A stretch of DNA of 64,000 nt from Undibacterium umbellatum (GTDB lineage Bacteria > Pseudomonadota > Gammaproteobacteria > Burkholderiales > Burkholderiaceae_D): assembly GCF_014284125.1 (NCBI RefSeq), contig NZ_JACOFX010000003.1, forward strand, positions 62,001 to 126,000. Reading direction: 5' to 3'. Positions within the stretch are counted from its first letter, which is position 1; every line of letters starts with the position of its first letter. This document shows positions 9,099-64,000 of this stretch, in pieces. The position numbers and the translations under genes are program-made. The notes under the pieces were generated by a model. It had not been told where the DNA came from and made no database searches. It saw nothing but the letters and a program-made list of their open reading frames with translations.

Positions 9099-11372
9099 CT
9101 ACTGTGTCACGGCGTTGGCTGGTGCCGTTGCTGATGTTACCGCTGCTGGTGGTGCATCATCCATATCCAGGGTGCGTACCCCGGCACCGTTCAGGAATTC
9201 ATTGAACATCCAGTCACCTTCGGCATTGCTGATACCTTCAGGTATTGCTCGCGCCACCTCGGCTTTGCCTGCCAGCGCTACACGCATACTGTCTATCCAG
9301 ATAGGCAGAGCCAGAGTGGCTCCAAATTCACGTCCGCCCAGCGATTTGGGGTCGTCATAGCCCATCCAGGCAACCGCCACGACATTACTGGCATAACCGG
9401 CAAACCAGCCATCGACAGCCTCGCTGGTAGTGCCGGTCTTGCCTGCCAGGTCACGGCGGGCAAGTTTGCTACTGGCGCTGGCACCAGTACCGCTACGCAC
9501 CACTTCACGCAACATCAGGTCAGTGATATAGGCATTGCGTGCATCGATGACGCGTGATTCTTCCTGGGCCTTGGCAGGAGGCTTGTTTTCAAACAGCACG
9601 ACACCTTTACCATCCACCACCTTGCTGATCAGCCAGGGATTCACAGCATAGCCACCATTGGCGAATACCGCATAAGCCGATGCCAGCTGCAGCGGCGTTA
9701 CCGAACCCGTACCCAGCGCCATGGTCAGGTTGGCCTGGTGCTTGTCCTTGTCAAAGCCAAAGCGTGGCAACCAGGTCTTGGCATGATCAACACCGATGGC
9801 TTTCAGGATACGTACTGACACCACGTTCTTGGATTGTGCCAGTGCCGTACGCATGCTGACCGGGCCATCGTACTTGCCATCATCATTGCGTGGATCCCAG
9901 CGCAAGGCTTCTTCCGACGTGGAGGAGAGTTGCACATCATTGATCAGGGTGCCTGGATAAAAACCTTTTTCCAGCGCAGCAGAAAAAATGAAGGGCTTGA
10001 TGCTGGAACCGGGCTGGCGCCAGGCACTGGTCACATGATTGAATTTCTTGCGGTTATAGTCAAAACCACCCACCATGGCACGAAAGGAACCGTCTTCGGT
10101 GTTCAGTGCAACAAATGCACCTTCGACTTCAGGCATTTGTGAAATGCCCCAGTTCTTCTTGTTGTCCTGCATCACGCGTATCACGGCACCTGGGCGTATT
10201 TTGATGCCAGCTTTGGCCTTGTCGGAGAGCGCCGCTGCGGCAAAGCGCAAACCTTCGCCTGTGATTTCCACATTATCACCAGATTGCAATTCAGCCTTGA
10301 TGATCTTGGCGGATGACTGGATCACGACCGCCGCCAGTAATTTGTCATTGTCGGGATGTTTGCGCAAAATCTGGTCTATCGCATCTTCTCGCTCATCTTC
10401 ATCCGCAGGGAGTTCAATATAAGCCTCAGGCCCGCGGTAGCCATGGCGCTGGTCATAGGCCATGATATTGCGGCGCACCGCTTCATAAGCGGCATCTTGC
10501 TCAGCCTTGTAGATCGTCGTGTACACCTTGATGCCCTTGGTATAGGTGTCTTCCTTGTATTGCGCATAAATACTTTGACGCACCATCTCGGCAATATAAT
10601 CACCATGGGTATCGAATTGCTGGCCTTTGACAACCTTGATTTCTTCTTTGGCGGCAGCTTCCATTTGTGCTTGGGTGATATAGCCATTCCTGACCATGCT
10701 CTTCAAGACCAGTAATTGCCTTTGCTTGGTTTTTTCAAAATTGACGGCTGGGTTATGCCGCACCGGATTTTGCGGCACTCCAGCCAGCATGGCAGCTTCT
10801 GCCAGACTGAGCTGGTCCAGCGATTTGCCAAAATAAGTCTTGGCTGCACTGGAAAAACCGTGGCTGCGCTTGCCCAGGAAAATCTGGTTCATATACAGTT
10901 CCAGGATCTGGTCTTTGCTGAGCGCATCTTCTATCCGGTAAGTCAGCAAAATCTCTTTCATTTTGCGTTCCAGTGACTTTTCATTGGTCAGGAAAAAATT
11001 GCGGGCCACCTGCATGGTGATGGTCGATGCACCCTGATGAAAGCCGCGGCTCAAGTCTGCCAGGATGGCACGACCGGCGCTGATGAAAGAGACTCCGCCA
11101 TGTTCATAAAAACGCGCATCCTCTATCGACAACAAGGCATTTTTCATGACGGCAGGAATCTGCTTGATAGGTACAAAGTCCCGGTGTTCTTCACCAAACT
11201 CACCGATCAGGGCATTGTCTGCGGTATAGATGCGCAGCGGGATCTTTGGACGGTAGTCCGTCACTGCTTCCAGTGTCGGCAGGCCAGGTGCGACCACAAA
11301 AAATATAAAGGCCAGGCCTGCCAGCAACAGGGTGGTACAGAGACTGAGGCCAAACACTATCCACTTCTTCAT
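9099..11372 (-). CDS. mrcA: Class A penicillin-binding protein 1A
   Basis: A bifunctional peptidoglycan synthase of 757 residues, anchored by an N-terminal transmembrane helix (about 7-28). The glycosyltransferase 51 domain follows, with EDARFYEHGG (catalytic Glu) and GASTITMQVARNF, about residues 60-230. An OB-like linker comes next, then the transpeptidase with SSIKP (about 457), SKN (about 512) and KTG (about 642). It polymerises and cross-links murein at the inner membrane and is a beta-lactam target. It starts 8 bases after the upstream ABC gene, with AAGGAAT as ribosome site inside that gene's end. It is thus the last gene of a three-gene leftward operon. Confidence 0.96.
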   Translation of the reverse strand: MKKWIVFGLSLCTTLLLAGLAFIFFVVAPGLPTLEAVTDYRPKIPLRIYTADNALIGEFGEEHRDFVPIKQIPAVMKNALLSIEDARFYEHGGVSFISAGRAILADLSRGFHQGASTITMQVARNFFLTNEKSLERKMKEILLTYRIEDALSKDQILELYMNQIFLGKRSHGFSSAAKTYFGKSLDQLSLAEAAMLAGVPQNPVRHNPAVNFEKTKQRQLLVLKSMVRNGYITQAQMEAAAKEEIKVVKGQQFDTHGDYIAEMVRQSIYAQYKEDTYTKGIKVYTTIYKAEQDAAYEAVRRNIMAYDQRHGYRGPEAYIELPADEDEREDAIDQILRKHPDNDKLLAAVVIQSSAKIIKAELQSGDNVEITGEGLRFAAAALSDKAKAGIKIRPGAVIRVMQDNKKNWGISQMPEVEGAFVALNTEDGSFRAMVGGFDYNRKKFNHVTSAWRQPGSSIKPFIFSAALEKGFYPGTLINDVQLSSTSEEALRWDPRNDDGKYDGPVSMRTALAQSKNVVSVRILKAIGVDHAKTWLPRFGFDKDKHQANLTMALGTGSVTPLQLASAYAVFANGGYAVNPWLISKVVDGKGVVLFENKPPAKAQEESRVIDARNAYITDLMLREVVRSGTGASASSKLARRDLAGKTGTTSEAVDGWFAGYASNVVAVAWMGYDDPKSLGGREFGATLALPIWIDSMRVALAGKAEVARAIPEGISNAEGDWMFNEFLNGAGVRTLDMDDAPPAAVTSATAPANAVTQ

Positions 11373-11380
11373 ACTATTCC

Positions 11381-13147
11381 TTATTCTTCCAGGGTTTGCA
11401 GCAGATACAGGCGCTGATAAATGCCCTGTTCCACTTGCATTAATTCTTGATGATTGCCTTGCTCCGCCAGCTTGCCGTGGTTCAGCACGATAATGCTGTC
11501 GGCATCGCGTATGGTGGAGAGTCTATGGGCAATCGCGATGATGCTGACCTTGCCGCGCAATTCTGTCAGCGCGGTTTGTACCACTTGTTCGGTTTCACTG
11601 TCGATATGCGAAGTCGCTTCGTCCAGGAACAGGATGCGCGGCTTGCCAGCCAGAGCACGGGCAATCGCCAGCAATTGCTTTTGGCCTGTGGACAGGCGTG
11701 CACCACCTTCACCCAACGGGGTATCGTAGCCATTTTCCAGTTGCAAAATAAAATCATGCACGTGCGCAGCCTTGGCTGCGGCGATGATATCTGCTTCGCT
11801 GATGTCGCGCCCCATGGCGATATTTTCGCGTGCATTTGCTGCCAGCAAAAACGGTTCTTGCGGCACCAGCCCCACCTTCTCGCGGAAGTGGGCATCCGTG
11901 ACACTGGCCAGCGCTTGTCCATCAACTTCCATACGGCCAGACTGCGGTGTATAAAAGCGTAGCAAGAGACTCAGCAGGGTAGATTTGCCGCTACCGGTAT
12001 GACCGACAATGCCATAAAAACTGCCAGCCGGAATATCCAGGCTAAAGTCATGCAAGACTGGCTGTGCTGGATCATAACCAAAACTCACCTTGTCTAGCGT
12101 CAGGTGACCATCGGTAATGCGTGCATCGCTGCTGGCCTGTACGTGCTGGTGTTCATTCAGCAGCGTGTTGACGCGTGCGGCTGAGACCACGGCTTGCTGT
12201 ATCTGGCCAAACTGCAGGGTGATCTGTATCAGCGGTTCCACCACACGGGCGATGTAGCTGACAAAGGCATACAGCACACCGATTTCGACACCAGAAAAAC
12301 TGCGCTGACTGAAAGTGAAAATCACTACCACCAGCAAGATCGAATTCATCAAATCCAGCGCCGGGCGCAACAACCAGGCATTGGCACGCAATTCATCCAG
12401 CCTGGCGGCGTAATGCAACTGGTTGGTCGTGGCAAAGCGTTCACCAAAGCGGCGTTCGGCATTGCTGGCTTGCAGCGCGCTCATGCCATTGATGCTTTCT
12501 GCCACCTGGGCATTGATTTCACTGCGCAACTGGCGAGCCTTGCTGACGGCTGGCGCACTCCAGCGCTGGTAAAACCAGACGATGATGATGACTGCCGGTA
12601 TCAGCATGATGACAATCAGCATCAAGCGCCATTCCAGCCAGGCCATGGCAGTCAGCGCACCGATGACGACGATGGTGCTGTCGAGCATGACGAACAAGAC
12701 CTGCACATATAGGCTCTTGACTGACTCGGTATCATTCGTCACGCGGCTGACCAGCTGCCCGGTAATCGCCTTGTCAAAGAAAGCCATGGGCAGGCGCAAG
12801 ACATGCTCATACACTTGTTCACGCAAGCGCCGCACTGAACGCATGGCGACGCCTGCCAGCCTGGTGAGTTGCAGATAACGCAGCCAGGTCGCAGCCCAGC
12901 CTGATAACACATAGGCAGCCAGCAAGCCTATGACCATGCCCATATCCATTTGATGCGGCAACAGGTAGCGATCTATGAAGGCCTTACCCAGCAAGGGGCC
13001 AATCGCCTCCAGGCCAGCCGCGATAAATAAAAAGAAAATGCCCAGCCAGACATGGCGTTTTTCACTGCGGGCTGCATACAGCAGCAAGTGCACTGCCTGT
13101 TTTTTTTCTGACATGGCAGCGGGTAATTGTTTGGTATCAGGCTGCAT
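11381..13147 (-). CDS. mdlB: ABC exporter half-transporter, MdlB-like (catalytic subunit)
   Basis: A 588-residue half-transporter with six transmembrane helices (about 30-320) fused to an ATPase domain. Walker A GHTGSGKST (about 386), signature LSTGQKQL and Walker B ILFLDEATS with the catalytic Glu are intact. The ATG at 13147 overlaps the stop of the upstream gene (ATGCAGCCTGA), giving coupled translation; another ATG at 13114 is possible. With the adjacent MdlA-like protein it should form a heterodimeric inner-membrane exporter. The substrate is unknown: lipids, peptides or drugs in relatives. It lies directly before mrcA. Confidence 0.85.
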   Translation of the reverse strand: MQPDTKQLPAAMSEKKQAVHLLLYAARSEKRHVWLGIFFLFIAAGLEAIGPLLGKAFIDRYLLPHQMDMGMVIGLLAAYVLSGWAATWLRYLQLTRLAGVAMRSVRRLREQVYEHVLRLPMAFFDKAITGQLVSRVTNDTESVKSLYVQVLFVMLDSTIVVIGALTAMAWLEWRLMLIVIMLIPAVIIIVWFYQRWSAPAVSKARQLRSEINAQVAESINGMSALQASNAERRFGERFATTNQLHYAARLDELRANAWLLRPALDLMNSILLVVVIFTFSQRSFSGVEIGVLYAFVSYIARVVEPLIQITLQFGQIQQAVVSAARVNTLLNEHQHVQASSDARITDGHLTLDKVSFGYDPAQPVLHDFSLDIPAGSFYGIVGHTGSGKSTLLSLLLRFYTPQSGRMEVDGQALASVTDAHFREKVGLVPQEPFLLAANARENIAMGRDISEADIIAAAKAAHVHDFILQLENGYDTPLGEGGARLSTGQKQLLAIARALAGKPRILFLDEATSHIDSETEQVVQTALTELRGKVSIIAIAHRLSTIRDADSIIVLNHGKLAEQGNHQELMQVEQGIYQRLYLLQTLEE

Positions 13148-14888
13148 CCAGGCTTGCTTCCAATTGTTGATAACGCCATTGCGTTGCATACCAGCCATTC
13201 AAATGCAGCAAGGCCTGGTGATTGCCTCGCTCTATGATTTTGCCTTCACGCAAAACCAGGATGTGATTGGCTTCCAGCACCGCACTCAGGCGGTGGCTGA
13301 CGATGACGGCACTGCGTTCAGGATGTTCTTGCCTCAGTTCTGCCAGGTGCTGCAGGATATGCGTTTCGGTTTGGGTATCCACTGCCGACAAGGCATCGTC
13401 CAGCAATAATAAGGGGCTGGCCGTCAGCAAGGCGCGGGCGATGGCCACGCGCTGCTTTTGTCCGCCAGACAAAGTAACGCCACGTTCACCCACCAGCGTG
13501 TCATAACCATATGGGAAGCGTTGTATATCATCATCTACCGATGCCAGTTCTGCGGCCTTCATCACCTCGGCACGAGTGGCGGCAGGATTGCTAAGCGAGA
13601 TATTGTCAGCAATCGATGCCGAGAATAAAAATGGCTCTTGTGCTACCCAGTTGATCGCCTGGCGCAGGGCTTGTAGCTTGTAGTCTGCCAGCGCATGTCC
13701 ACCCCAGGCCACATGGCCTTGCTCTGCCTCGATCTGGCGCAGTAACAGGCGCACAACGCTGGATTTGCCCGAGCCAGTCGGTCCGACTATGCCTATAGTC
13801 TGCCCCGGTGCGATATGCAGGCTGATGCCCTGCAAGGCTGGCCTGGTCTGGCCCGGATACGCAAAGCTGACATTGTCCACGATCAAATTACCGGCTGGTG
13901 GCGTATCCAGCTTGCCCTCATCATTGACACTGAGTTCCTGCATCAAGACCGGCTCCAGCCGCGCCCAGGCTGCCTTGCCGCGCTCCAGCAGCGACAAGAC
14001 CCAGCCAGCAGCAAACATCGGCCAGATCAACTGACCTAAATACATTGAGAAACTGGTCAGCGCACCGATACTCATTTCTCCATGCCATACCAGATAACCA
14101 CCGACGCCCAGCGTCAGCGCACCAGCCGCAGTCAGGGACAGGCCCACTGCAGGTTCATAGGCGGCTTCCCAGCGTTGGGCATTCAGGCTGGCAGCGGCGG
14201 CATTTTCTGCCAGTTCGGCAAACTGTGCGGCGCTGCGCTGTTCTAGGCCCAGGGCGCGCAGGGTACGCACGCCGGATAAAGTCTCTTGCACCTGGTCGTT
14301 GAGCTTACTGAAACGGTCGAGAGAATCGCGTGAAGCATCCTGTATATGATGGGTAATATGCTTGAAGGCCCAGGCCATGAAAGGGAAGGGCAGCAGAGCC
14401 GCCAGTGCCAGCCGCCAGTCCACACCCAGCAGCATCATGCCTATCACCAGGGCAAAGGTCATGCTGCCATCAAAACCGGCGAGGGCGGCTTCACCTGCGG
14501 CCAGCTCTATGGCATCTGCATCATTGGTGCCCAGCGCCATCAGGTCGCCGGTTCTTTGTTGCTGGAAAAAACTGCTCCCCTGCACACTCAGGCGTTCATA
14601 CAAGCGGGTGCGTAACTGCATGCCAAGTTTATACGAAGCCGTAAACAATTGCGTGCGCCAGCCTACGCGCAGGAAGTAGATAGCCAGGCCCATGCCCAGC
14701 AGCCAGGACAGTTCCCACATCAGGGCAGTGTTGTCAAAACGACCCGCCACCATGCCATCGATAATCATGCCGACACGGCGTGGTATCAAGACCGTCATGA
14801 CGGCAACGGCAAACAGCATGAGGCCAGCACTGATGTACTGACGCCAGTGCTGGCGAATAAATTGTGCTAAAAGCTGGTACAGACTCAT
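13137..14888 (-). CDS. mdlA: ABC exporter half-transporter, MdlA-like (degenerate ATP site)
   Basis: A 583-residue half-transporter with an N-terminal membrane domain (about 20-310) and C-terminal ATPase. Walker A GPTGSGKSS and signature LSGGQKQR are normal, but the residue after Walker B is Asp instead of the catalytic Glu (LLLLDDALSAVD). E. coli MdlA shows the same substitution, as I recall it. Together with the intact partner this predicts one active and one degenerate ATP site, the hallmark of asymmetric heterodimeric exporters. It is the first gene of the mdlA-mdlB-mrcA operon; 146 bases separate it from the divergent SpoIIE-type gene. Confidence 0.86.
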   Translation of the reverse strand: MSLYQLLAQFIRQHWRQYISAGLMLFAVAVMTVLIPRRVGMIIDGMVAGRFDNTALMWELSWLLGMGLAIYFLRVGWRTQLFTASYKLGMQLRTRLYERLSVQGSSFFQQQRTGDLMALGTNDADAIELAAGEAALAGFDGSMTFALVIGMMLLGVDWRLALAALLPFPFMAWAFKHITHHIQDASRDSLDRFSKLNDQVQETLSGVRTLRALGLEQRSAAQFAELAENAAAASLNAQRWEAAYEPAVGLSLTAAGALTLGVGGYLVWHGEMSIGALTSFSMYLGQLIWPMFAAGWVLSLLERGKAAWARLEPVLMQELSVNDEGKLDTPPAGNLIVDNVSFAYPGQTRPALQGISLHIAPGQTIGIVGPTGSGKSSVVRLLLRQIEAEQGHVAWGGHALADYKLQALRQAINWVAQEPFLFSASIADNISLSNPAATRAEVMKAAELASVDDDIQRFPYGYDTLVGERGVTLSGGQKQRVAIARALLTASPLLLLDDALSAVDTQTETHILQHLAELRQEHPERSAVIVSHRLSAVLEANHILVLREGKIIERGNHQALLHLNGWYATQWRYQQLEASLDAA

Positions 14889-54349: not shown

Positions 54350-57124
54350 CTAGTTCTCCTTGGCGCACCAGACTTGCCACATGCTGCGATAGGCATTTTC
54401 TATCTTGCGGCAGAAGCCTGCTTCATCCATCAATGGGCTATTTTGCATTTGCATACGCAAGCCAGCACGTATGGTGATGAGCTCCGGCAGATTGCTGGCA
54501 AGGCTGACGACCTTGTCCACATATTCTTCTTCTGTCCTTGCAATCCATTCAGGTCGGCCCAGGCCGCTCAATATGCTACTACCCAGCCTGCCCATGCTGG
54601 GGCGAGACGCCAGGGTGACAAAGGGAATGCCCAGGTACAGGGATTCGAACAAAGTCGTACCAGAGTTGTGCGGGAAGCAATCCAGTCCGATGTCTATGCT
54701 ACGGATAACATCCCATGGCGGACTGTGAGCGCCGATTTGCAAGCGGCTGCGGTCTATCCCCAGGGCCACAAATTTATCTTCCATGGACTTGCGCATGGCT
54801 TCATCCTTGAAGTTGCCACTGTCTATCACCAGCCGTGAATTCTCCAGTTTCTGTAATATGCTGGCCCAAACCCTGATCACCTTGTGATTGATGCGCACGG
54901 CACGGCTAAGCGTGCCTATCGTGACATATCCGTTTGTCAATGCGGGCAAGGTGTTGTACATTCCCATGCCTTCTGCAGGACGATAGACCAGCGATGGCGT
55001 TTCGACGCGCCAGACTTGTTCAGCAAATAAATGATTTGCCTCTGGTGGCGCGAAAATCGCATCGGACAGCATATAGTCTATCGCCGTCAAGCCTGTCGTA
55101 TAGGCATAACCCAGCCAGGTGATCGAAACCGGAGCTGGTTTGCGGGCCATGACGCGCAAGCGGTTATTACCTGTATGACCAGCGACATCGACGAGGATAT
55201 CAATACCGTCGTCACGTATTTTTTCGGCCATGGCATCATCGCTCAGATGCCTGGTTGGTATCCAGTGATCCACATGCTTGCGATAACGTACACTCACAGC
55301 ATCTTCTGACGCGAGTTCAGCATAGGCATAGATCTCGAACTGGCTCTTGTCATGCTGAGCCAGCAATGGTTCCAGGAAATGCTGGACCGGGTGACGCCGC
55401 ATATCCGGTGAAACATAGCCTACCTTCAAGCGACGTGCTGGCTGCTTGCTATTGGTATGCGGGTGCCATTGCGGGTAAAAATGCGCTACAAAGCGGCGTT
55501 CATATTCCTGATAAGCGGCAAAAATTTCTTCTGCACTCAGGTCGGGATGATAGTTCAGGGAAAACAGCAGATTGCCATAGGCTTCAGAGAAATCCGGTTG
55601 GCATTCCAGTGCCTGGCGATAAGCAGCAACTGCTTCAGGGATCATGCCCTGATCGTCGTACAACACACCCAGGCAATTATGGGCATGGGCTAAATCTGGC
55701 TTGATTTTTATCGCTTGATCGAAACAGGTACGAGCTTGTGTCGCCCGGTTGAAGGTCATGTGTAACTGACCAAGTTCAAGCAAGGATACGATGGAGTTGG
55801 GGTCCAGTTGCAGGGCTTTTTGGTAACAGGTTTGCGCGTCGTCATAGCGCTGTTGTTCAAAAAAGAGTTGGCCCAGATGGCTGTGATAACTGGCATTGTT
55901 TTTATCCAGATCCAGGGCTTTGCGGTAACTTGCTTCTGCTTTGGAAAACTGTGCATTTAACTTATAAATCTGTGCAAGATTGACATAGGCAAGGGCAAAT
56001 TTGGGGTCCTGCTCCAAGGCGCGTTGATAATAACTTTCCGCCTGTGCAAGATCCCCTTGATCCAGGAAAATTAAGCCAAGATTGCCAAGCGCTTGGGCAA
56101 AAACTGGTTGCAGTTGCAGAGCTTGCAGGTAGCAGTTCTTTGCTGCCTCGACTTGCCCCTGTTCTTTTAAAACCACGCCCAGATTGTAATGAATGATGGC
56201 CTCTTGTGGAAGAGAAACCAGCATCTGGCGATATATGCTCTCAGCCTCTGCATAACGAGAGGACTGCAAATACAGATTTAACAGGGCATCCCTTGCTGCC
56301 GTATTGGCGGGCTGGCGTGTCAGCAGGTTTTTTAATACATTTTCTGCTTCCTGCTGTTTACCCTGTTGCTGATACAGGTTGACCAGGAAAAAATCCGCAG
56401 TTGTCATCTCGGTCTGGCAGGCAATCGCGTGCTGGAAACAAGGCTCGGCATCCAGGTAGCGCCCCTGTGCTGCGTGTATCATGCCGAGATTGCAATAGGC
56501 ATAATAATGCTGGGGTTCCAGTTTTAATAATTCTTCATAATGATGGGTGGCAGCACTGAGGTCATCGCGCTGCTGAAAAAGCATGGCCAGATTGAAATGC
56601 GCATGTCCAAATTGCGGATTGAGTTCCAGGGCGTGCAGATAAGCCTGTTCAGCATCGTGGTTTTTCCCTTCCAGCGACAGGCTGACGCCGAGATTGAAGT
56701 GGGCGATGATATTGCCAGGTTGCCGGGCCAGGACATGTCGGTAACATGCTATCGCTTCCGCAAAGCGTGATTGCCCATCCAGGCACAGGCCAAGATTGAT
56801 CCAGGTTTCCAATGATTCTGGTTCGCTTTCCAGGACAATGCGATAGACAGCCTCGGCTTCCGGCAACAAGAATTTTTCATACAGCTTGTCAGCCAGGATA
56901 TTGGCAGGCAGGTTTTCAGCCGGGTCAAGTTGCAGTTTTTCGTAGGCTACGGCGATGGCATCATGATGCCCGGCAAATACCGGCATTGTTGCGACATTGC
57001 TGGCAACTGTTGCTGGTTCATCCGCTGCCAAGACCGGGCCGGGTTTTTTAGGAGGGGCGCTAACTTGTTGGGGTTCGGGCGTTTCTTGTGATTTTGAAAA
57101 AGTTTTTTTAAGCCAGTTCAACAT
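54350..57124 (-). CDS. TPR protein with SPINDLY-type O-GlcNAc transferase domain (GT41)
   Basis: A 924-residue protein. After a low-complexity start, at least a dozen 34-residue TPR units run from about 75 to 520, many with the W/A/G/Y/F/A/P spacing. The C-terminal half (about 545-915) matches the bacterial OGT/SPINDLY catalytic region: KVGYVSPDMRRHPV, DILVDVAGHTGNNRL, ITWLGYAYTTG, then FPHNSGTTLFESLYLGIPFVTL near 845-865. Eukaryotic relatives glycosylate Ser/Thr of proteins; bacterial ones modify adhesins or flagellar proteins. No target or flagellar gene is adjacent. Confidence 0.88.
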   Translation of the reverse strand: MLNWLKKTFSKSQETPEPQQVSAPPKKPGPVLAADEPATVASNVATMPVFAGHHDAIAVAYEKLQLDPAENLPANILADKLYEKFLLPEAEAVYRIVLESEPESLETWINLGLCLDGQSRFAEAIACYRHVLARQPGNIIAHFNLGVSLSLEGKNHDAEQAYLHALELNPQFGHAHFNLAMLFQQRDDLSAATHHYEELLKLEPQHYYAYCNLGMIHAAQGRYLDAEPCFQHAIACQTEMTTADFFLVNLYQQQGKQQEAENVLKNLLTRQPANTAARDALLNLYLQSSRYAEAESIYRQMLVSLPQEAIIHYNLGVVLKEQGQVEAAKNCYLQALQLQPVFAQALGNLGLIFLDQGDLAQAESYYQRALEQDPKFALAYVNLAQIYKLNAQFSKAEASYRKALDLDKNNASYHSHLGQLFFEQQRYDDAQTCYQKALQLDPNSIVSLLELGQLHMTFNRATQARTCFDQAIKIKPDLAHAHNCLGVLYDDQGMIPEAVAAYRQALECQPDFSEAYGNLLFSLNYHPDLSAEEIFAAYQEYERRFVAHFYPQWHPHTNSKQPARRLKVGYVSPDMRRHPVQHFLEPLLAQHDKSQFEIYAYAELASEDAVSVRYRKHVDHWIPTRHLSDDAMAEKIRDDGIDILVDVAGHTGNNRLRVMARKPAPVSITWLGYAYTTGLTAIDYMLSDAIFAPPEANHLFAEQVWRVETPSLVYRPAEGMGMYNTLPALTNGYVTIGTLSRAVRINHKVIRVWASILQKLENSRLVIDSGNFKDEAMRKSMEDKFVALGIDRSRLQIGAHSPPWDVIRSIDIGLDCFPHNSGTTLFESLYLGIPFVTLASRPSMGRLGSSILSGLGRPEWIARTEEEYVDKVVSLASNLPELITIRAGLRMQMQNSPLMDEAGFCRKIENAYRSMWQVWCAKEN

Positions 57125-57224: not shown

Positions 57225-58334
57225 TTAACGGATAATGTCAGGATTCAAGACTTCTTCATCCACCCTCGGTGTTTGTCCGCGCAACACCGAATTGCCGCTA
57301 TACAGGGTGCGCTGGTCTATTTTGGCTGGCTGGCACCAGTGGGCCTCCTGCATTTCCTGGTTCAGGCCGTACACAGACAATGCGTTGGCATACACCACTT
57401 GATGAATGACTTCGGCAGAGATACCGCGGCTGGCCATCAGGCGGGCGGACTTGGGTACGGCCAGCGGATCAGACACGCCCCAGTCGCAGGCAGAATTGAC
57501 GATGATGCGTTCAGGGCCATATTGGTTGACGATGTCGGCCAGCCTTTCATTCCCCATCTTGGTGGATGGGTAAATCGTGAAGGCGCACCAGTAGCCGCGG
57601 TCCAGCACTTCCTGCACAGTCTCTTCATTATTGTGGTCGATAACGCAGCGTGCCGGATCAAAGCCGCATTCTTCCAGCACATCCATGGTGCGGGTGGTGC
57701 CGCGTTTTTTATCGCGGTGTGGCGTATGGATCATGATGGGCAGTTCAAATTCTATCGCCATGGCGATTTGAGCACGCAGGGCCTTGTCTTCGAGTTCTGT
57801 CTGCTCATCGTAGCCAATTTCACCGAGTGCCACTACGCCTTCCTTGCCCAAGTAACGAGGCATGATGTCCAGCACCGCTTCTGCCAGTGCCGGGTTATTC
57901 GCTTCTTTGGGATTAAGGCCGATAGCGCAGTAATGACGTATGCCAAACTGCCCGGCGCGAAAGCGCTCGAAGCCGGTGATGGTGGAAAAATAATCGATGA
58001 AGCTGCCTACATTGGTACGCAATTGCCCCAGCCAGAATGCCGGTTCGATGACGGCGACAATGCCGGCTTTGGCCATGGCTTCATAGTCATCGGTAGTGCG
58101 GGCGATCATATGCGCATGCGGGTCTATCATCATGCCATTGCCACCGCTGGCGAGTTGGCGGAATGCCGTCTGGCCCTGTTGCAATTGTCCGGCCTGGGCC
58201 AGCAGGTTTTGCAGCATCTGCGGTGTGATCGTGCCATTGCAACAGGGGCAGGTGACGGCACGGTCAGAAAACATTTCATCCACGATCGTACTGTCGGCGA
58301 CAAAGTCGCTTGAAAATTTACCGTTGTCATTCAT
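57225..58334 (-). CDS. EboB-like TatD-type metal-dependent hydrolase
   Basis: A 369-residue protein. The TatD-type TIM barrel begins near residue 68 with MIDPHAHM and continues with GEIGYDEQTE, PIMIHTPHRDKKRGT and VIDHNNEETV, giving the metal-binding His/Glu/Asp set. The first 65 residues are an extension with a CPCC motif (VTCPCCNGTIT), which could bind a metal. Its ATG overlaps the stop of the preceding eboF-like gene (ATGA). In ebo clusters EboB is a protein of this type with unknown reaction. Named EboB-like on fold and on the neighbouring eboF- and eboD-like genes. Confidence 0.78.
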   Translation of the reverse strand: MNDNGKFSSDFVADSTIVDEMFSDRAVTCPCCNGTITPQMLQNLLAQAGQLQQGQTAFRQLASGGNGMMIDPHAHMIARTTDDYEAMAKAGIVAVIEPAFWLGQLRTNVGSFIDYFSTITGFERFRAGQFGIRHYCAIGLNPKEANNPALAEAVLDIMPRYLGKEGVVALGEIGYDEQTELEDKALRAQIAMAIEFELPIMIHTPHRDKKRGTTRTMDVLEECGFDPARCVIDHNNEETVQEVLDRGYWCAFTIYPSTKMGNERLADIVNQYGPERIIVNSACDWGVSDPLAVPKSARLMASRGISAEVIHQVVYANALSVYGLNQEMQEAHWCQPAKIDQRTLYSGNSVLRGQTPRVDEEVLNPDIIR

Positions 58335-59734
58335 TTGCCAGCTCCTGAGTTTGCATTTTCAAACATGATCTTCAAGGCGATGTCCTTGATATCCGCTGCA
58401 TGGACTTCATTCCTGCCATCTGCTGACGGGCGATCGAGTATCAGCAAAGGCCCATCGGCTGCATCATCCACCGGCCTGCCGTGTGAGCCTTGTACCAGGC
58501 TGGCATCCAGGCCAATGACATTCATCAGGCTGCGAAAACCCAGCATGCGCTTGCCCAGCCGCCATGCCACTGCCAGCTTGGGGAAGCTGATATTGGTATC
58601 GACAAACAGCTCAGCCGGGTCATAGCCGGGTTTGCGGTGGATTTCTACCGTGCGGGCAAAGTCAGGTGCCAGCGCATCATCCTGCCAGTAATAGTAAGTG
58701 AACCAGGAGCGCTTGTCTGCCATCACTACCAGTTCACCTGACCGGGGGTGATCCAGCCCTATGGCCGCACGCTCACTGCCAGCCCAGATGCCTTCTACAC
58801 CAGCGACATTGCCGAGCAACCTGCGTACTGGCGCAATCAATTCTGGCCTGGAGATATATACATGGGCAAACTGATGGTCAGCCACGGCATAGGCGCTGGA
58901 GGCAATCGGGTCGAGTAACTCTGCGCCATCCTCTTCGCGCACGGTCAGGTACCCCGCTTCACGCAAGATGCGGTTCAGGTGTATTGGTCTGTCAACGGCA
59001 GTAATGCCGTATTCGGACAAGACCATGACACGGCGGCCAGCCTTTTGGGCATGGGCGATCAGGTCACCAGCCACGTCATCAATATCGCGCAAGGATTGTT
59101 GTACTGCCGGATTGCTCAGGTCTGGCCCATGTCTTTGCAAGTCATAGTCCAGGTGCGGCAGGTAGACCATGGTCAGGGTCGGGTTTTTTTCTGTGATGGC
59201 CAGCTTGGCGGCGTCAGCAATCCAGAGGCTGGACTTGATCGTGGTGGCCGGGCCCCAGAACTGGAATAGCGGGAAGGCACCGATTTTTTGTGTCAGTTCA
59301 TCGCGCCATGCTGGCGGTGTCGTATAACAGTCCGGCAGCTTGCGCCCATCTGCCTTATAGATGGGGCGAGGGGTGATGCCATAGTCATGGGTCGATGCCA
59401 TGTTGTACCACCAGAACAAATTCGCGCATGTGAATTTGGGATCACGCGCCTTGCCTGCTTCCCAGATTTTTTCTCCAGTGACGAGTTTATTGGATTGCCG
59501 CCAAAACCAGATTTCTGCCAGGTCGCGGAATAACCAGCCATTGCCGACGATGCCATGTTGCTGTGGCGATAGCCCGGTCATGATGGTGGCTTGCACGGTG
59601 CACGTGACGGCTGGTGCCACGCTTTTTAGTGGCAGCATATTGCCGCTGGCCACCAAGGCAGACAGCCTCGGTGTCAGCGCACCCAGCAGACTGGGGGTGA
59701 GGCCTACGATATTTAATATCAACAAGCTTTGCAT
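58331..59734 (-). CDS. EboF-like alkaline phosphatase / nucleotide pyrophosphatase family protein
   Basis: A 467-residue member of the phosphodiesterase/alkaline phosphatase superfamily. The nucleophile region reads PAVTCTVQATIMTG (about 41-54), metal ligands lie in YLPHLDYDLQRHG (about 190-202), and a LSEYGI motif replaces the SDHG of nucleotide pyrophosphatases; DHQFAHVY comes later. No signal peptide is evident, so it seems cytosolic. It is first in a two-gene leftward unit with the EboB-like gene, and 456 bases from the divergent VioB-like gene. Confidence 0.78.
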   Translation of the reverse strand: MQSLLILNIVGLTPSLLGALTPRLSALVASGNMLPLKSVAPAVTCTVQATIMTGLSPQQHGIVGNGWLFRDLAEIWFWRQSNKLVTGEKIWEAGKARDPKFTCANLFWWYNMASTHDYGITPRPIYKADGRKLPDCYTTPPAWRDELTQKIGAFPLFQFWGPATTIKSSLWIADAAKLAITEKNPTLTMVYLPHLDYDLQRHGPDLSNPAVQQSLRDIDDVAGDLIAHAQKAGRRVMVLSEYGITAVDRPIHLNRILREAGYLTVREEDGAELLDPIASSAYAVADHQFAHVYISRPELIAPVRRLLGNVAGVEGIWAGSERAAIGLDHPRSGELVVMADKRSWFTYYYWQDDALAPDFARTVEIHRKPGYDPAELFVDTNISFPKLAVAWRLGKRMLGFRSLMNVIGLDASLVQGSHGRPVDDAADGPLLILDRPSADGRNEVHAADIKDIALKIMFENANSGAGK

Positions 59735-60190
59735 GAGTAAATTTTTGCTTATTCATACTACGGTGAAGTCCGGGAGCGCAGTACATCTTGCCACCAGTCA
59801 GACGAATAGTCGCACCAGCTTAGCGACGTATTGTTTCCTTATTATTAATTTAATCCTGGCTTTGTGCAATAGCTACTTGCTGGAAAGTATTCCTTAAAAA
59901 GAAATGTTGCATGGAAAAGATATTTCAAGAAAAGATGCCGCGAAGCTATTGCATGTTTTGCACTATTGTTTCAATATTGGTAATTATGTTTTCTGCAATG
60001 TATATGCAAGGATGTACGGAAGGCAATGGACATTTCCGGCTCAGTTGAGTGGAATGTCACTGTTTTTCGGTATTGCAACGGCAACCCCATGTACTTCATC
60101 AATCTTTTCAGGGCTTGCGCAAAATCATCTCGGGCTGTCACGGTTTTGCGTTATCCGGTATCGATTGGTGCAACCACCACAGGAGAACCA
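59735..60190. other. 456-bp divergent promoter region
   Basis: Separates the eboF-like and VioB-like genes. The middle (about 59830-60015) is distinctly A+T rich, with several weak -10/-35 possibilities in both directions that I cannot choose between. The frame of the VioB-like gene is open back to 60026, but this part lacks a ribosome site and family similarity. No terminator or structured RNA seen. Confidence 0.5.
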
Positions 60191-62869
60191 ATGAGCTACC
60201 TCAGTCCGCCCCGTTTAGTGTTTGCCGGCCAGTTCCAGGCCGATGTGTCCACCATCAACAACGATCCCGAGCATTTCGATACAGCGCGTTTCCGCTCCAA
60301 TTACCAGATGCCAGGTCCTGGCGCGACCAATGGCTGGTGGAACCCTAACGGCACCGGCTCCTGGCGTTTCCGCAATTGCGTGGTCACCAGCGTTGTCTAC
60401 CGCGATGGCAGCACTTGTTCAGATCCCAGTCTCGATCCCGTCATCGGCCTGGCCGTGAATGGTTCAGACACCAGGGTAGAAGGCAAGCTGGTGGATCTTG
60501 ATAGTGAACAACAAATGGTGTCGGAAATCTGGGGCTTTTCGGTCAACCTCGGTAGTGAGGCCACAGGCATGGGTTTCCAGAGCCGTTTTGCTGTCGCCCC
60601 GTTTGCCGATATCTGGGTCAATTATCCACCCGGCCAGCCAGACTCTTTTTTTTGTGCCTATTATCAATCTGTGCTGGAACAAATCAAGATCACCGGTGCC
60701 GGGCCTTCGCGCTTCTTGAATGAATTGCTGGCCGAGAATAAAAATCCAGACAACTTCAGTATCAAGTTCAATGTCGATAGTTTCGACGATACCATGTCCT
60801 CGCCCAATTTTACCTTTGGCCGCGTGGTGGGCAGCATAGGCTTGCATGAAGCGAAGGAGCCGCGCCATTTTGTCCCTGGCCGCCGCCTGTGGGCAGTGCC
60901 TGGGCAAACCGCCAATGATGCGATAGGGCAAATTGTCGGTAATGTATTGACCCTTGATCTCGGCAATAGCCTGCCCATCAAGGAACTGGGTGGTGCGCGG
61001 GCCGACTCCGGCAGTTTGACGGTGGCTTTGTTGCCTAACGATGGTGCGCCGCAATTGCTGGCTGAAGTCAATTACATGGGCCAGCGCTGGTATGAAAGCA
61101 CGGCGGGTATAGTCTCCATCCCTTTGAACAGCACGCAACTGGCGGCGGCTGCCAATACACCTCTGGGACTGGTGGCCAATGCCACCCAACCCTTGCTCGC
61201 GGAAGCACCGAATGGGCAATGGGTACGTGCCGACAATTTTGTTTTCAGGTTCAATCCACCAGAAAATCAGACGGTTACATTTTATGCCAGCAGTTTTGGT
61301 CAGCCCCTGGGAAACACCAGGATCAGCCTGGGTTACGATTCCAGCGCCATGGAAGGGCAGATCAAGCAAGGCCCGGTGCCCGGCCCGCAAAAAGTCGGCA
61401 CCCCACCTGAGGCGCTCACTTTCCAGCCGAGCATCATTACCGATAGCGACGGTACCGCGGAATTGAGCTTGAAAGCCTCGGACCCCGGTAATCCGCGTGG
61501 CTATATCGATGGCCAGGTATATGGCATCACTTACCAGATAGGCAGTGCCCAACCTGCCACAGGAAGCGTGGGCAATGGTGCGCTGAGCCTGAATGTACTG
61601 GTATTCAGTGGCTACACCATTCCTGATAAGCCAGACTGGTTATGTGATGTGCGTCCCATCTTTCAGCAATACGCCGATCTGTATCCCATCATGCACAAGA
61701 TCGTTGACCTGTCGAATTACGCCAGTTTGACGAACAAGATTTTTGCACTGAAAAATGTCTTCAGGGCGCCGGTTTCTGACCCCAACTACATGCCCGTGAC
61801 ACGTGACCTCTCCACCAAGAAACGCGAGATGCTGCAAAAGTGGCTGGACAATCCTGTGTATATGGAACTCGATTCCGTTCCTGATCTGCACCGTGCCCTG
61901 CAACAGGCCATAGAGCTGGAGCATGCAACCATACCGCCTTACCTGACAGCGCTCTACAGTATCAAGCCAAATGCCAATATCGAAGTAGCACAATTGATAC
62001 GCAGCGTGGTGATGGAAGAAATGCTGCATATGGCTCTGGTCGCGAATTTGATGATATCCATCGGCGGCAAGCCCAGCTTCAATCGGCCCAAATTTGTACC
62101 TGTTTATCCCGGCTCACTGCCAGGTGGCTTGCGTGCAGATTTGAGTGTGCGCTTGCGCAAATGCTCGATTGATCAATTGCGTGCCTTCATGTCCATAGAA
62201 CAGCCCGAGAAAACCATAGAGCCGGTGCATTACCGTGCCAGGGAGGGTGAACCTGTTGATACATCCAAGTACACCATAGGCTGGTTCTATGATGAAATCA
62301 AACAGACCTTGACGGAACTGAGCAATGCCGGTCAGATCAGTTTTGGCAATGCCGACAAGCAGGTCACAGAATGGCATGGCACAGGCAAGTTATTTGCGAT
62401 TACTTCACTGGCCGATGCCTGCCGTGCCATTGATGAAATCAAACGTCAGGGTGAGGGTGCCGGAGCGCGTCATCCAGGCGATGGTGATGGTGAATTGTCC
62501 CATTATTACAAGTATGCCGAAATCGTCAATGGTCATCGCCTGGTCAAGAATGAACATGGCTTTGCCTATAGCGGCGAAAAAATTCCTTTCGATCCAGATG
62601 GTGTCTGGCCGATGATGGATGATCCCAATCTGGCGATGTATCCCCAGGGTTCACGCGCCCGCATTTTGCAGGAACAATTTGCCCGCACTTATCAAGCCTT
62701 GCTGAATGGCTTGCACATCGCCTTCAATGGCGAACCAGAAACACTGGGGCAAGCCGTGGGCCTGATGTTCTCATTGGGACTGGCAGCACAGCAATTGATG
62801 GCTACGCCTTCAGGCTTGAACGATGGCACCAATGCCGGGCCCAGCTTCCAGTTGCCATTCCCAGGTTGA
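60191..62869 (+). CDS. VioB-like multidomain protein with C-terminal ferritin-like domain
   Basis: An 892-residue protein. The N-terminal two-thirds starts LSPPRLVFAGQFQADVSTINND, the opening of VioB-type proteins, and is beta-rich. Residues about 575-830 form a ferritin-like domain of the iminophenyl-pyruvate dimer synthase kind: ELEHATIPPYL (iron-ligand Glu and His) and VMEEMLHMALVANLM (ExxH). VioB and RebD/StaD couple oxidised tryptophan units in bisindole pathways. No VioA or other violacein enzyme is visible, so the substrate is open. The ATG at 60191 follows AGGAG with five bases between, which decides the start. An eboD-like gene follows after 48 bases. Confidence 0.85.
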   Translation: MSYLSPPRLVFAGQFQADVSTINNDPEHFDTARFRSNYQMPGPGATNGWWNPNGTGSWRFRNCVVTSVVYRDGSTCSDPSLDPVIGLAVNGSDTRVEGKLVDLDSEQQMVSEIWGFSVNLGSEATGMGFQSRFAVAPFADIWVNYPPGQPDSFFCAYYQSVLEQIKITGAGPSRFLNELLAENKNPDNFSIKFNVDSFDDTMSSPNFTFGRVVGSIGLHEAKEPRHFVPGRRLWAVPGQTANDAIGQIVGNVLTLDLGNSLPIKELGGARADSGSLTVALLPNDGAPQLLAEVNYMGQRWYESTAGIVSIPLNSTQLAAAANTPLGLVANATQPLLAEAPNGQWVRADNFVFRFNPPENQTVTFYASSFGQPLGNTRISLGYDSSAMEGQIKQGPVPGPQKVGTPPEALTFQPSIITDSDGTAELSLKASDPGNPRGYIDGQVYGITYQIGSAQPATGSVGNGALSLNVLVFSGYTIPDKPDWLCDVRPIFQQYADLYPIMHKIVDLSNYASLTNKIFALKNVFRAPVSDPNYMPVTRDLSTKKREMLQKWLDNPVYMELDSVPDLHRALQQAIELEHATIPPYLTALYSIKPNANIEVAQLIRSVVMEEMLHMALVANLMISIGGKPSFNRPKFVPVYPGSLPGGLRADLSVRLRKCSIDQLRAFMSIEQPEKTIEPVHYRAREGEPVDTSKYTIGWFYDEIKQTLTELSNAGQISFGNADKQVTEWHGTGKLFAITSLADACRAIDEIKRQGEGAGARHPGDGDGELSHYYKYAEIVNGHRLVKNEHGFAYSGEKIPFDPDGVWPMMDDPNLAMYPQGSRARILQEQFARTYQALLNGLHIAFNGEPETLGQAVGLMFSLGLAAQQLMATPSGLNDGTNAGPSFQLPFPG

Positions 62870-62917
62870 AGGAAGGCTTGAAGGAAAAAACGTGGATAAA
62901 CCAGGAAAGGATGTATC

Positions 62918-64000
62918 GTGAAACTGGCTGAACTGAACCGGCTGCCCGATCTGCAAGTGGTCGCGCCTGCAACTGCGCGGACAGGCTGGCAACAGCAACA
63001 TGTGCGCGTCGATTACACCTTTCCCGTGGTTTCCACCCGTGATGCCTTTGATATTGCCAATCCAGATTTTCGTGCAGTGGTGACTTTGCGTGAACCGCAG
63101 CGCAGGCACAGGCTGGCGATTTTCCTTGATGAAGGCTTGGCCAGGGCCATGCCCGGCCTGGTCGAGCAGATACTTGCCTATCTGCGCTTTCATCACGAAG
63201 CCATGGAATTGGCAGGCGAGATCTACCTGCTGCCTGGCGGTGAAGTCTGCAAGAATGATGCAAGCCTGGTGGAACGCCTATTGCAGGCTCTGTCAGAGCG
63301 GGCAATAGACCGGCATTCTTATTCCATCGCCATTGGCGGTGGCGCAGTGCTGGATGCAGTGGGCTATGCCTCTGCCATCTTCCATCGCGGCGTGCGGCAT
63401 ATACGTTTCCCGACTACGGTGCTGGCGCAGGATGACAGCGGTGTTGGTGTCAAAAATGCGGTCAACTGGCAAGGGCAAAAAAACCTCATTGGCACCTTTG
63501 CCCCACCCTGGGCAGTCATCAATGATGCACGTTTCATCGATATCTTGCCCTCACGTGAAAAGCGGGCCGGGCTGGCAGAAGCCGTCAAGGTTGCCCTGAT
63601 ACGCGACCATGCATTTTTTCTCATGATGGAAAAGCAGTTGCCCGCACTGGCAGCATTTGACAGCAATGTACTGAACGTAGTGATCACCCGCTCCGCCAGT
63701 TTGCACATGCACCAGATTGCCCATGGTGGAGACCCCTTTGAAAGCGGCTCGGCCAGGCCGCTGGATTATGGTCACTGGGTCGCGCATAAACTCGAACGCC
63801 TGACTGCACATGCGCTATCGCATGGCGAAGCGGTCGCCATAGGCCTGGTACTGGATGCACGCTATTCCTGCCTTGCAGGTTTACTACCAGAAGGGGAAGA
63901 CGCCCGCATTCATCGCTTGCTGACGCAACTGGGTTTTGATCTGTGGCATGCACAATTACTGGCGCAGGACGAGCAAGGTGACTTGCTGGTATTGCAGGGC
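62918..64000 (+). CDS. EboD-like sugar-phosphate cyclase (3-dehydroquinate synthase family), 5' part
   Basis: The first 361 residues of a gene that leaves the window. The GTG start at 62918 follows AGGAAAGG at 62903-62910. It has the NAD-binding AIGGGAVLDAVGYASAIFHRG (split here by family numbering, about 143-162) and the cyclase signature PTTVLAQDDSGVGVKNAVN, which differs from the QVDSSVGGKTGVN of true dehydroquinate synthase. LAEAVKVALI, DYGHWVAHKLE and LSHGEAVAIGL carry the zinc-site residues. The variant signature and neighbours point to EboD, related to 2-epi-5-epi-valiolone synthases; the product is unknown. Confidence 0.83.
   Translation, partial: MKLAELNRLPDLQVVAPATARTGWQQQHVRVDYTFPVVSTRDAFDIANPDFRAVVTLREPQRRHRLAIFLDEGLARAMPGLVEQILAYLRFHHEAMELAGEIYLLPGGEVCKNDASLVERLLQALSERAIDRHSYSIAIGGGAVLDAVGYASAIFHRGVRHIRFPTTVLAQDDSGVGVKNAVNWQGQKNLIGTFAPPWAVINDARFIDILPSREKRAGLAEAVKVALIRDHAFFLMMEKQLPALAAFDSNVLNVVITRSASLHMHQIAHGGDPFESGSARPLDYGHWVAHKLERLTAHALSHGEAVAIGLVLDARYSCLAGLLPEGEDARIHRLLTQLGFDLWHAQLLAQDEQGDLLVLQG

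What the first reader, a model, noticed from the sequence alone, without database searches (positions are those of the whole stretch)
57225..64000. ebo-type genes paired with a VioB-like ferritin-domain protein
EboF-like, EboB-like and EboD-like proteins are encoded around a large VioB-like protein. Known: the ebo genes are required to move the scytonemin precursor to the cyanobacterial periplasm, and a related cluster in Pseudomonas is linked to repelling nematodes; VioB-type proteins act in bisindole synthesis. Both contexts involve indole- or aromatic-amino-acid-derived products. Inference: this locus makes or exports an uncharacterised aromatic metabolite. The remaining ebo genes (A, C, E) may lie past the right edge.
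Basis: partly seen in the sequence, partly recalled or inferred. Interest (0 to 1): 0.85.

Follow-up and report, generated by a model that had tools for sequence, protein, structure and literature searches.

The report
VioB-like enzyme inside ebo cluster
An Undibacterium bacterium carries a complete set of the six puzzling 'ebo' genes around a relative of the violacein enzyme VioB, a pairing that recurs in distant bacterial phyla and suggests that ebo genes often serve VioB-type chemistry whose product is still unknown.

Summary
The window lies in an Undibacterium-like genome. eboE, eboC and eboA follow directly past the right edge, so the cluster is complete: eboB-eboF leftward, vioB-like-eboD-E-C-A rightward. 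The large protein probably starts at 60191, not 60026. It is a full-length two-domain homologue of VioB (profile alignment to a real VioB, Prob 99.7, E 1e-26) but not VioB itself (10 bits, cut-off 1250). Six putative di-metal ligands are shared with VioB and with 88-89 of 89 aligned sequences. The pairing recurs: 23 of the 79 nearest relatives in a species-level genome scan have at least three ebo genes in the 10-kb flanks, in four phyla and many gene orders; 34 judgeable ones have none and 22 cannot be judged. In Flavobacterium the same 4 of 160 genomes carry both. In Bacteroidota all 5 of 365 genomes with the N-domain (3 of them weak matches) carry eboE (29 of 365). Many ebo clusters lack it (0 of 14 others examined in the order). 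Best reading: the VioB-like protein makes a coupled or oxidised amino-acid-derived product and Ebo helps deliver it to the periplasm. Association is shown; chemistry and transport are inferred. New variant of a known kind.

The parts
57225..58334 (-). eboB: TatD-superfamily metal-dependent hydrolase, second gene of the leftward pair
   Evidence: PF01026 4e-17; only 42.5 bits to TIGR00010, cut-off 206; 62% identity to Aureibacter EboB
58331..59734 (-). eboF: type I phosphodiesterase/nucleotide pyrophosphatase-like; overlaps eboB by 4 bases
   Evidence: PF01663 5e-64; 47-55% identity to EboF in nine other ebo loci
59735..60190 (.). divergent intergenic region between eboF and the vioB-like gene
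   Evidence: sequence; promoter scan of 59600-60300 gave one promoter-like site, 1.2 expected by chance, so no promoter is claimed
60191..62869 (+). vioB-like gene, 892 aa: VioB-type N-terminal beta-rich domain fused to a ferritin-like domain
   Evidence: PF12902; hhalign to a true VioB Prob 99.7, E 9.8e-27 over 782 columns; AF2 model pLDDT 82, pTM 0.75
60191..61831 (+). N-terminal VioB-type domain (residues 1-547)
   Evidence: alignments A1 and A5; AF2 model pLDDT 88, pTM 0.90; no convincing fold match in the PDB
61898..62527 (+). ferritin-like domain PF12902 with putative di-metal ligands E577, E610, H613, E670, E755, H771 (numbered from the 60191 start)
   Evidence: for the span; ligands conserved in 88-89 of 89 rows including a true VioB; fold match to 3hl1, E 8e-9
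62918..64000 (+). eboD: sugar phosphate cyclase (DHQS-like), GTG start; ends at 64162, past the edge. Then, at window position = L002 position + 54000: eboE 64170-65378, eboC 65375-66322, eboA about 66346-67257

Best explanation
The locus is a complete ebo cluster with a VioB-superfamily enzyme built into it. Shown: the six ebo genes, the full-length homology to VioB, the conserved ferritin-type ligand set, and a repeated association of VioB-type proteins with ebo across phyla. Inferred: in the cytoplasm the ferritin-like half, holding a di-metal centre, oxidatively couples or otherwise oxidises an imino or keto acid made from an amino acid, probably an aromatic one, as VioB does with indole-3-pyruvate imine; the N-terminal domain holds or shapes the reactive product. 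The Ebo proteins (a UbiA-type membrane enzyme with a cyclitol-forming cyclase and hydrolases) then make the lipid-linked helper, or directly the modification, by which the product reaches the periplasm, as for the scytonemin monomer. Ebo is thus an accessory module that different pathways borrow, VioB-type proteins being one recurrent client.
For: Complete cluster. VioB homology. Six ligand residues shared with VioB. 23 of 79 scanned relatives with at least three ebo genes in flanks of up to 10 kb, in Pseudomonadota, Bacteroidota, Cyanobacteriota and Actinomycetota. Of the 56 loci without ebo in the held flank I sent 20; 19 genomes were held and 11 of these have EboE elsewhere in the assembly. 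Flavobacterium: the same 4 of 160 genomes have both, gaps 5.4-5.9 kb. Bacteroidota: 5 of 5 genomes with an N-domain match are among the 29 of 365 with EboE; p 2.8e-5 without the centre genome, 4e-4 if the weakest match is dropped too. Repeated recruitment: the label needs 15-16 changes on the VioB-N tree, at least 12 forced, and 8 on the EboE tree, at least 4 forced. Undibacterium EboE groups with Solimicrobium and Massilia, yet their VioB-like proteins belong to different clades. Ebo is needed to move scytonemin monomer to the periplasm (PMC6282210, first part of the discussion read).
Against: 34 of 57 judgeable loci have no ebo cluster in the flank, and 8 of the 19 genomes searched have no EboE at all, though some of these are draft or metagenome assemblies; VioB-type proteins can thus work without ebo. 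The 79 loci are those nearest the window protein, not a random draw. None of 14 other ebo loci fetched in the order (of 15; some cut by contig ends) has a VioB-type neighbour. In Burkholderiales the co-occurrence is not significant once the window's genome is left out (p 0.054). No amino-acid oxidase that would feed a VioB-type reaction was recognised beside the window's cluster. A single fusion in a Symploca metagenome assembly (L126) joins a secreted-looking protein to the ferritin-like domain, which would place that enzyme outside the cytoplasm. A review describes VioB as a heme b protein with catalase activity (PMC9705886, passages), not a di-iron one. Counts are not independent of ancestry.
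Confidence: 0.5

Rival explanations
1. Ebo makes the metabolite skeleton (a prenylated cyclitol, as Yurchenko et al. proposed) and the VioB-like protein is a tailoring oxidase acting on it, not a dimer synthase.
For: EboD belongs to the sugar phosphate cyclases and EboC to the UbiA family (PMC5133447 sections 3.7 and 3.4.2 read). EboD was not found in the held flank of the two Streptomyces loci, so the small molecule may differ between clusters.
Against: ebo knockouts in Nostoc accumulate the scytonemin monomer and no detectable gene-specific intermediates (PMC6282210). VioB-type proteins also occur in genomes without a detected EboE.
Confidence: 0.25
2. The VioB-like protein is a peroxide- or iron-handling protector that accompanies oxidative pathways; the coupling to ebo is through oxidative stress, not product chemistry.
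For: A review gives VioB catalase activity (PMC9705886, passages). LodA/GoxA-type oxidases, a peroxide-making family by recall, lie near some loci (L044, L097 by Pfam; L102, L126 by my models; L126 shows only the C-terminal part).
Against: End-to-end homology to a biosynthetic coupling enzyme, N-domain included; LodA-like genes were seen in only a few of the 89 loci scanned; bacterioferritin matches in the PDB sequence search cover only about 70 residues.
Confidence: 0.15
3. Neighbourhood by chance or by shared mobility (genomic islands, megaplasmids), without a functional link.
For: Several members lie on large plasmids, the VioB-N tree mixes phyla, and the counts are not independent of ancestry.
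Against: At least eight different arrangements and unlike VioB-type proteins in the same ebo lineage; ebo in the flank in 23 of 79 loci.
Confidence: 0.08

Closest known systems
ebo cluster of cyanobacteria (scytonemin) and eustigmatophyte plastids (Klicki 2018 PMC6282210; Yurchenko 2016 PMC5133447)
   Same: All six genes eboA-F in one place; EboE over the curated cut-off.
   Different: Divergent order B F | V D E C A; VioB-like gene inside; no ScyA/B/C recognised beside it; EboC and EboA below the strict family cut-offs.
VioB, iminophenyl-pyruvate dimer synthase (TIGR04492); RebD/StaD by recall
   Same: Same two domains in the same order; six putative metal ligands and tyrosines Y584, Y700, Y834 shared.
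   Different: 24-26% identity; 10.3 bits against the equivalog cut-off of 1250; no VioA/C/D/E recognised beside it.
EDB cluster of Pseudomonas fluorescens NZI7 (Burlinson 2013, Zhou 2022; neither paper held, known via passages in PMC6282210 and PMC9655573)
   Same: A full ebo set tied to repelling nematodes and to indole products. As stand-ins I looked at ebo loci of two P. cichorii and one P. capsici genome: each has two low-scoring VioB-N-type proteins after eboF (45-65 bits); in L148 Pfam finds no ferritin-like domain in them, and they stand with secreted-looking CxxCH proteins and a ScyE-like protein.
   Different: The window has the fused N plus ferritin protein. NZI7 itself was not compared.
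PF12902 ferritin-like proteins (3hl1, CC_0557 of Caulobacter)
   Same: Fold of the C-terminal half (TM 0.72 on the target) and, read by eye, the ligand pattern.
   Different: 3hl1 is 317 aa and matches only the ferritin-like half.

Membership tests
ebo cluster | eboA-F clustered | tested here: met
   Six genes within about 10 kb.
ebo cluster | EboE over NF035939 cut-off (250) | tested here: met
   454.3 bits.
ebo cluster | EboA over NF035937 cut-off (320) | tested here: not met
   222 bits; but the EboA domain model NF035938 is met, 153 against 50.
ebo cluster | EboC over NF035940 cut-off (250) | tested here: not met
   112.4 bits, and 118.2 to SCO3242_trans, also below its cut-off. UbiA Pfam met; called EboC by position and by identity to neighbours in other ebo sets (29-44% where a match was found).
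ebo cluster | EboD is a sugar phosphate cyclase outside AroB | tested here: met
   NF004852 556 bits (cut-off 333); aroB TIGR01357 205 (cut-off 305). No tree of the superfamily was built.
ebo cluster | EboB and EboF lie outside canonical TatD and NPP clades | tested here: inconclusive
   Under TatD and PhnA equivalog cut-offs and 45-62% (EboB) and 47-55% (EboF) identical to genes in other ebo sets. No hit to an EboB or EboF model was returned and no tree against canonical enzymes was built.
ebo cluster | needed for export of a metabolite to the periplasm | not testable with these tools
   Published for Nostoc (PMC6282210).
VioB (TIGR04492 equivalog) | score over 1250 bits | tested here: not met
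   10.3 bits, E 0.11.
VioB superfamily (two-domain architecture) | N-domain plus ferritin-like domain aligned end to end with VioB | tested here: met
   hhalign 782 columns, Prob 99.7.
VioB superfamily (two-domain architecture) | putative di-metal ligands shared | tested here: met
   E577, E610, H613, E670, E755, H771, all identical in VioB. Metal binding itself not tested.
violacein or indolocarbazole pathway | VioA/RebO-type oxidase and VioC/D/E beside it | tested here: not met
   No such family among the scanned ORFs from eboB to the LanC-like gene. Elsewhere in the genome not searched.
scytonemin cluster | ScyA, ScyB, ScyC | tested here: not met
   Not among the scanned ORFs; one ScyD/E-like protein at 57 bits, below the cut-off of 80.
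EDB cluster of NZI7 | gene content identical to EDB | not tested
   NZI7 sequence not in hand; Burlinson 2013 and Zhou 2022 not held.

The most novel reading that the evidence does not exclude
VioB-family proteins define a widespread and still undescribed natural-product class whose dedicated delivery module is Ebo: a cytoplasmic di-iron coupling enzyme makes the product and a shared ebo module moves it to secreted partners, so that scytonemin, the EDB repellent and the many VioB-like/ebo loci are cases of one export logic.
Probability: 0.35. Interest if true: 0.82.

Novelty: new variant of a known kind. Interest (0 to 1): 0.6.

Why it matters
What ebo does at the molecular level has been open since it was named. 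A small, recurrent set (VioB-like pair plus ebo, eight genes in a row in Flavobacterium) gives a compact system in which one suspected biosynthetic enzyme and the whole ebo module can be expressed together and dissected. It also widens VioB from a violacein enzyme to one branch of a large family with near-invariant putative metal ligands.

Tried and rejected
Rejected: that the VioB-like protein is VioB (10 of 1250 bits). Not rejected but unsupported: that any ferritin-like PF12902 protein goes with ebo. Of 16 Burkholderiales genomes with PF12902 only the two with a full-length N-domain have EboE, but the other 14 would share only 0.7 EboE genomes by chance (P of none 0.48), so this control has little power. 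No sign of a known defence system: 0 hits for 7 proteins in PADLOC (EboC was not sent). Weak or fruitless: the fold search of the N-domain gave only low-TM beta-sandwich matches; the promoter scan found no more than chance; neighbour clustering was hampered by spurious ORFs in high-GC loci, so counts of accessory genes are rough. In one search single-sequence models printed under one-letter names, so LodA and LodB, and rSAM and DUF1843, are not told apart there; where it mattered I confirmed with Pfam or NCBIfam. In Bacteroidota three of the five N-domain matches are weak (E 6.7e-8, 9.3e-10, 5.3e-4 for one genome; the last could be chance in 365 genomes) and none of the three is adjacent: the one at 5.3e-4 lies 19 kb from EboE, the one at 6.7e-8 84 kb, the one at 9.3e-10 on another contig. 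Ligand count: rows with under 250 aligned residues were dropped before it. No tree was made for EboA, B, C, D or F. Literature: (ebo operon, ebo gene, ebo genes, ferritin-like, VioB, RebD) gave 11 papers, none holding both an ebo term and one of the other three; one search gave none. These cover the open-licence library only; the two EDB papers most likely to mention such genes are not held.
Full report
What is there. The window is G000:C37:62001-126000 of a 6.46 Mb genome. Its VioB-like N-domain is 95% identical to that of Undibacterium pigrum and 82% to that of Undibacterium sp. TS12, so the genome is an Undibacterium or very close. Reading 24 kb past the edge completes the ebo set: eboD ends at L002:10162, eboE 10170-11378, eboC 11375-12322, eboA about 12346-13257 (window position = L002 position + 54000). 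The order is eboF and eboB leftward; vioB-like, eboD, E, C, A rightward. eboB/eboF and eboE/eboC overlap by four bases.

Identity of the ebo proteins. EboE passes its curated cut-off (454 of 250). EboD passes NF004852 and fails AroB. EboA passes the domain model (153 of 50) but not the family model (222 of 320). EboC fails its family model (112 of 250), also fails SCO3242_trans (118 of 260), and is named by UbiA membership and position. EboB and EboF hit no ebo model; they score under canonical TatD and PhnA cut-offs. Against Aureibacter (Bacteroidota) the identities of the best local matches are EboA 29, EboB 62, EboC 29, EboD 42, EboE 37 and EboF 48%.

The VioB-like protein. The start is probably 60191: AGGAG, five bases, ATG, and homologues align from there. 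A true VioB was taken from a relative (G850, L173, 1833 bits to TIGR04492). Blastp gives 24% over 575 residues, E 3e-14; hhalign aligns 782 columns end to end, Prob 99.7, E 9.8e-27. Against the VioB equivalog model the window protein scores only 10.3 bits. The AF2 model (19 rows, the window's included) has pLDDT 82 and pTM 0.75. Its C-terminal half matches 3hl1 (E 8e-9, TM 0.72 on the target). The N-domain alone is modelled at pLDDT 88, pTM 0.90 with no convincing PDB match. In 89 aligned ferritin-like domains, VioB included, E577, E610, H613, E670, E755 and H771 are identical in 88-89 rows: the pattern expected of a ferritin-type di-metal site. This is inference from sequence; a review calls VioB a heme b protein with catalase activity (PMC9705886, passages seen).

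Split and fused forms. In the eight plasmid records that cover at least 80% of the query, the match lies under two annotated genes, a hypothetical and a ferritin-like protein. In the genome scan a fused ORF occurs in Undibacterium and in Acidobacteriota, Chitinophaga, Mucilaginibacter, Symploca SIO1C2 and Streptomyces loci among others.

Recurrence with ebo. The scan of one genome per species with seven N-domains found 139 relatives and kept the best 80, giving 79 loci; these are the nearest to the window protein, not a random draw. With at least three ebo genes in the held flank (up to 10 kb): 23 of 79. Of the rest, 34 were judged to have enough flank (more than 8 kb from the middle of the N-domain ORF to either end of the locus) and lack ebo, and 22 cannot be judged. 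The 23 lie in Pseudomonadota (11), Bacteroidota (7), Cyanobacteriota (3) and Actinomycetota (2); 18 of the 23 hold all six genes. Annotated plasmids add Mycetohabitans and Aureibacter with all six and Gloeothece with two; Azospirillum B510 has the pair without ebo within 14 kb. The VioB-like genes stand before eboD, before eboA, after eboC, after eboB, inside the operon, or divergently.

Co-occurrence counts. Burkholderiales, 300 genomes: EboE 17, PF12902 16, N-domain 3 (two full length, one partial at E 3.5e-8 in G021); the two full-length ones are EboE-positive and adjacent, G021 is EboE-negative. Without the window's own genome this alone is not significant (p 0.054). Flavobacterium, 160: EboE 4, N-domain 4, the same four, gaps of 5.4-5.9 kb. 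Bacteroidota, 365: EboE 29, N-domain 5, all five EboE-positive; two strong matches are adjacent, three weak ones lie 19 kb, 84 kb and on another contig from EboE. p is 2.8e-5 without the centre genome and 4e-4 without the weakest match as well; ancestry is not accounted for. Of the 56 loci without ebo I sent 20; 19 genomes were held: 11 have EboE elsewhere in the assembly, 8 do not. Conversely none of 14 other Burkholderiales ebo loci (of 15; some cut by contig ends) has a VioB-type gene in the fetched stretch. So VioB-type proteins often go with ebo, while ebo has other partners too.

Independent recruitment. On the N-domain tree (89 rows) the ebo label needs 15-16 changes, at least 12 forced by well supported branches; shuffles give 24.8. 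On the EboE tree (50 rows) the label needs 8, at least 4 forced. Undibacterium EboE groups with Solimicrobium, Massilia and a Bradyrhizobium row at 100%, but its VioB-like protein sits in the fused clade with acidobacterial and myxobacterial proteins, far from those of Solimicrobium and Massilia. The same ebo lineage therefore holds unlike VioB-type proteins, which speaks for function over shared descent. These are quick trees with long branches flagged.

Companions elsewhere. A secreted-looking protein with a GVHN motif was found in 22 of 89 scanned loci and is fused to the ferritin-like domain behind a signal-peptide-like start in one Symploca metagenome-assembled genome. A protein of which two examples show ABM plus glyoxalase domains recurs as a cluster of 18 in 12 families by my labels. 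In two Pseudomonas cichorii genomes and one P. capsici genome a second locus has eboDCABEF followed by two low-scoring VioB-N-type proteins; in L148 these lack PF12902 and stand with secreted-looking CxxCH proteins, a GVHN protein and a ScyE-like protein. This resembles what Klicki et al. say of the EDB cluster, but NZI7 itself was not compared.

How it most likely works. VioB dimerises indole-3-pyruvate imine (PMC9705886, passages). By homology the window protein should act on an imino or keto acid from an amino acid; which one is unknown, and no feeding oxidase was recognised beside it. Ebo mutants of Nostoc keep the scytonemin monomer in the cytoplasm (PMC6282210, first part of the discussion and the section on other bacteria read). 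E. coli carrying the EDB cluster turns tryptophan into indole products with moderate repulsion of C. elegans (Zhou 2022, seen only as passages in the review PMC9655573). Together these make delivery of a VioB-type product to the periplasm the best reading; the steps in it are inferred.

Novelty. Ebo and VioB are known; two searches that would show a paper joining them found none (open-licence library only, and the two EDB papers are not held). Yurchenko et al. note genes of unknown function inserted in ebo operons and leave them aside (section 3.2, first part read). I rate it a new variant of a known kind.

Noticed in passing
L179:1199-6703 (C37:134199-139703, about 8-14 kb right of the window): LanC-like, HopA1-domain (PF17914, 2e-39) and APH/LxmK-like genes in a row beside a 432-aa and a 150-aa cysteine-rich protein with repeated CGNTAWQPC and CGNTCLPMTVGPV units: looks like a class V lanthipeptide-type system with a many-core precursor (the LxmK match, 87 bits, is below its cut-off of 315).
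   Followed up: partly
L002:14889-18112 (C37:130889-134112): Methyltransferase, DUF1843 (GDL-type) proteins and the radical SAM maturase TIGR03913 (663 bits) right of ebo in Undibacterium; the same maturase (729 bits) with two GDL peptides and a methyltransferase lies beside the VioB-like/ebo genes of a Symploca (L126). In Chromobacterium subtsugae such an operon is reported as quorum-sensing controlled along with violacein (PMC12114271, passages).
   Followed up: partly
L002:13719-14849: ScyD/ScyE-like protein next to the cluster (57 bits, cut-off 80), of the same weakly matched family as one in the Pseudomonas ebo locus L148 (55 bits); no hydrophobic segment was detected.
   Followed up: partly
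G000:C48:256406-259347 (L050:8406-11347), G000:C15:666904-670637 (L172:5904-9637): Further VioB-type proteins in the same genome: a ferritin-like plus N-domain pair in reverse order, and an N-domain protein without a ferritin-like domain after a secreted-looking protein with a CxxCH motif.
   Followed up: partly
L126:1963-4171; L044:7609-10670; L097:14735-17998; L102:4473-9049: LodA/GoxA-type CTQ oxidases and flavin maturases near some VioB-like loci, a possible alternative source of imino acids; L126 shows only the C-terminal part, L102 rests on my own model alone.
   Followed up: partly
L070:2623-18483: A Symploca ebo operon with several ferritin-like and VioB-N-type proteins inserted between its genes, including a 1234-aa protein with an N-terminal PF12902 domain.
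   Followed up: no
window 54350-57124: 924-aa protein on the minus strand that looks by eye like a TPR-repeat O-GlcNAc-transferase-type protein, next to eboB.
   Followed up: no
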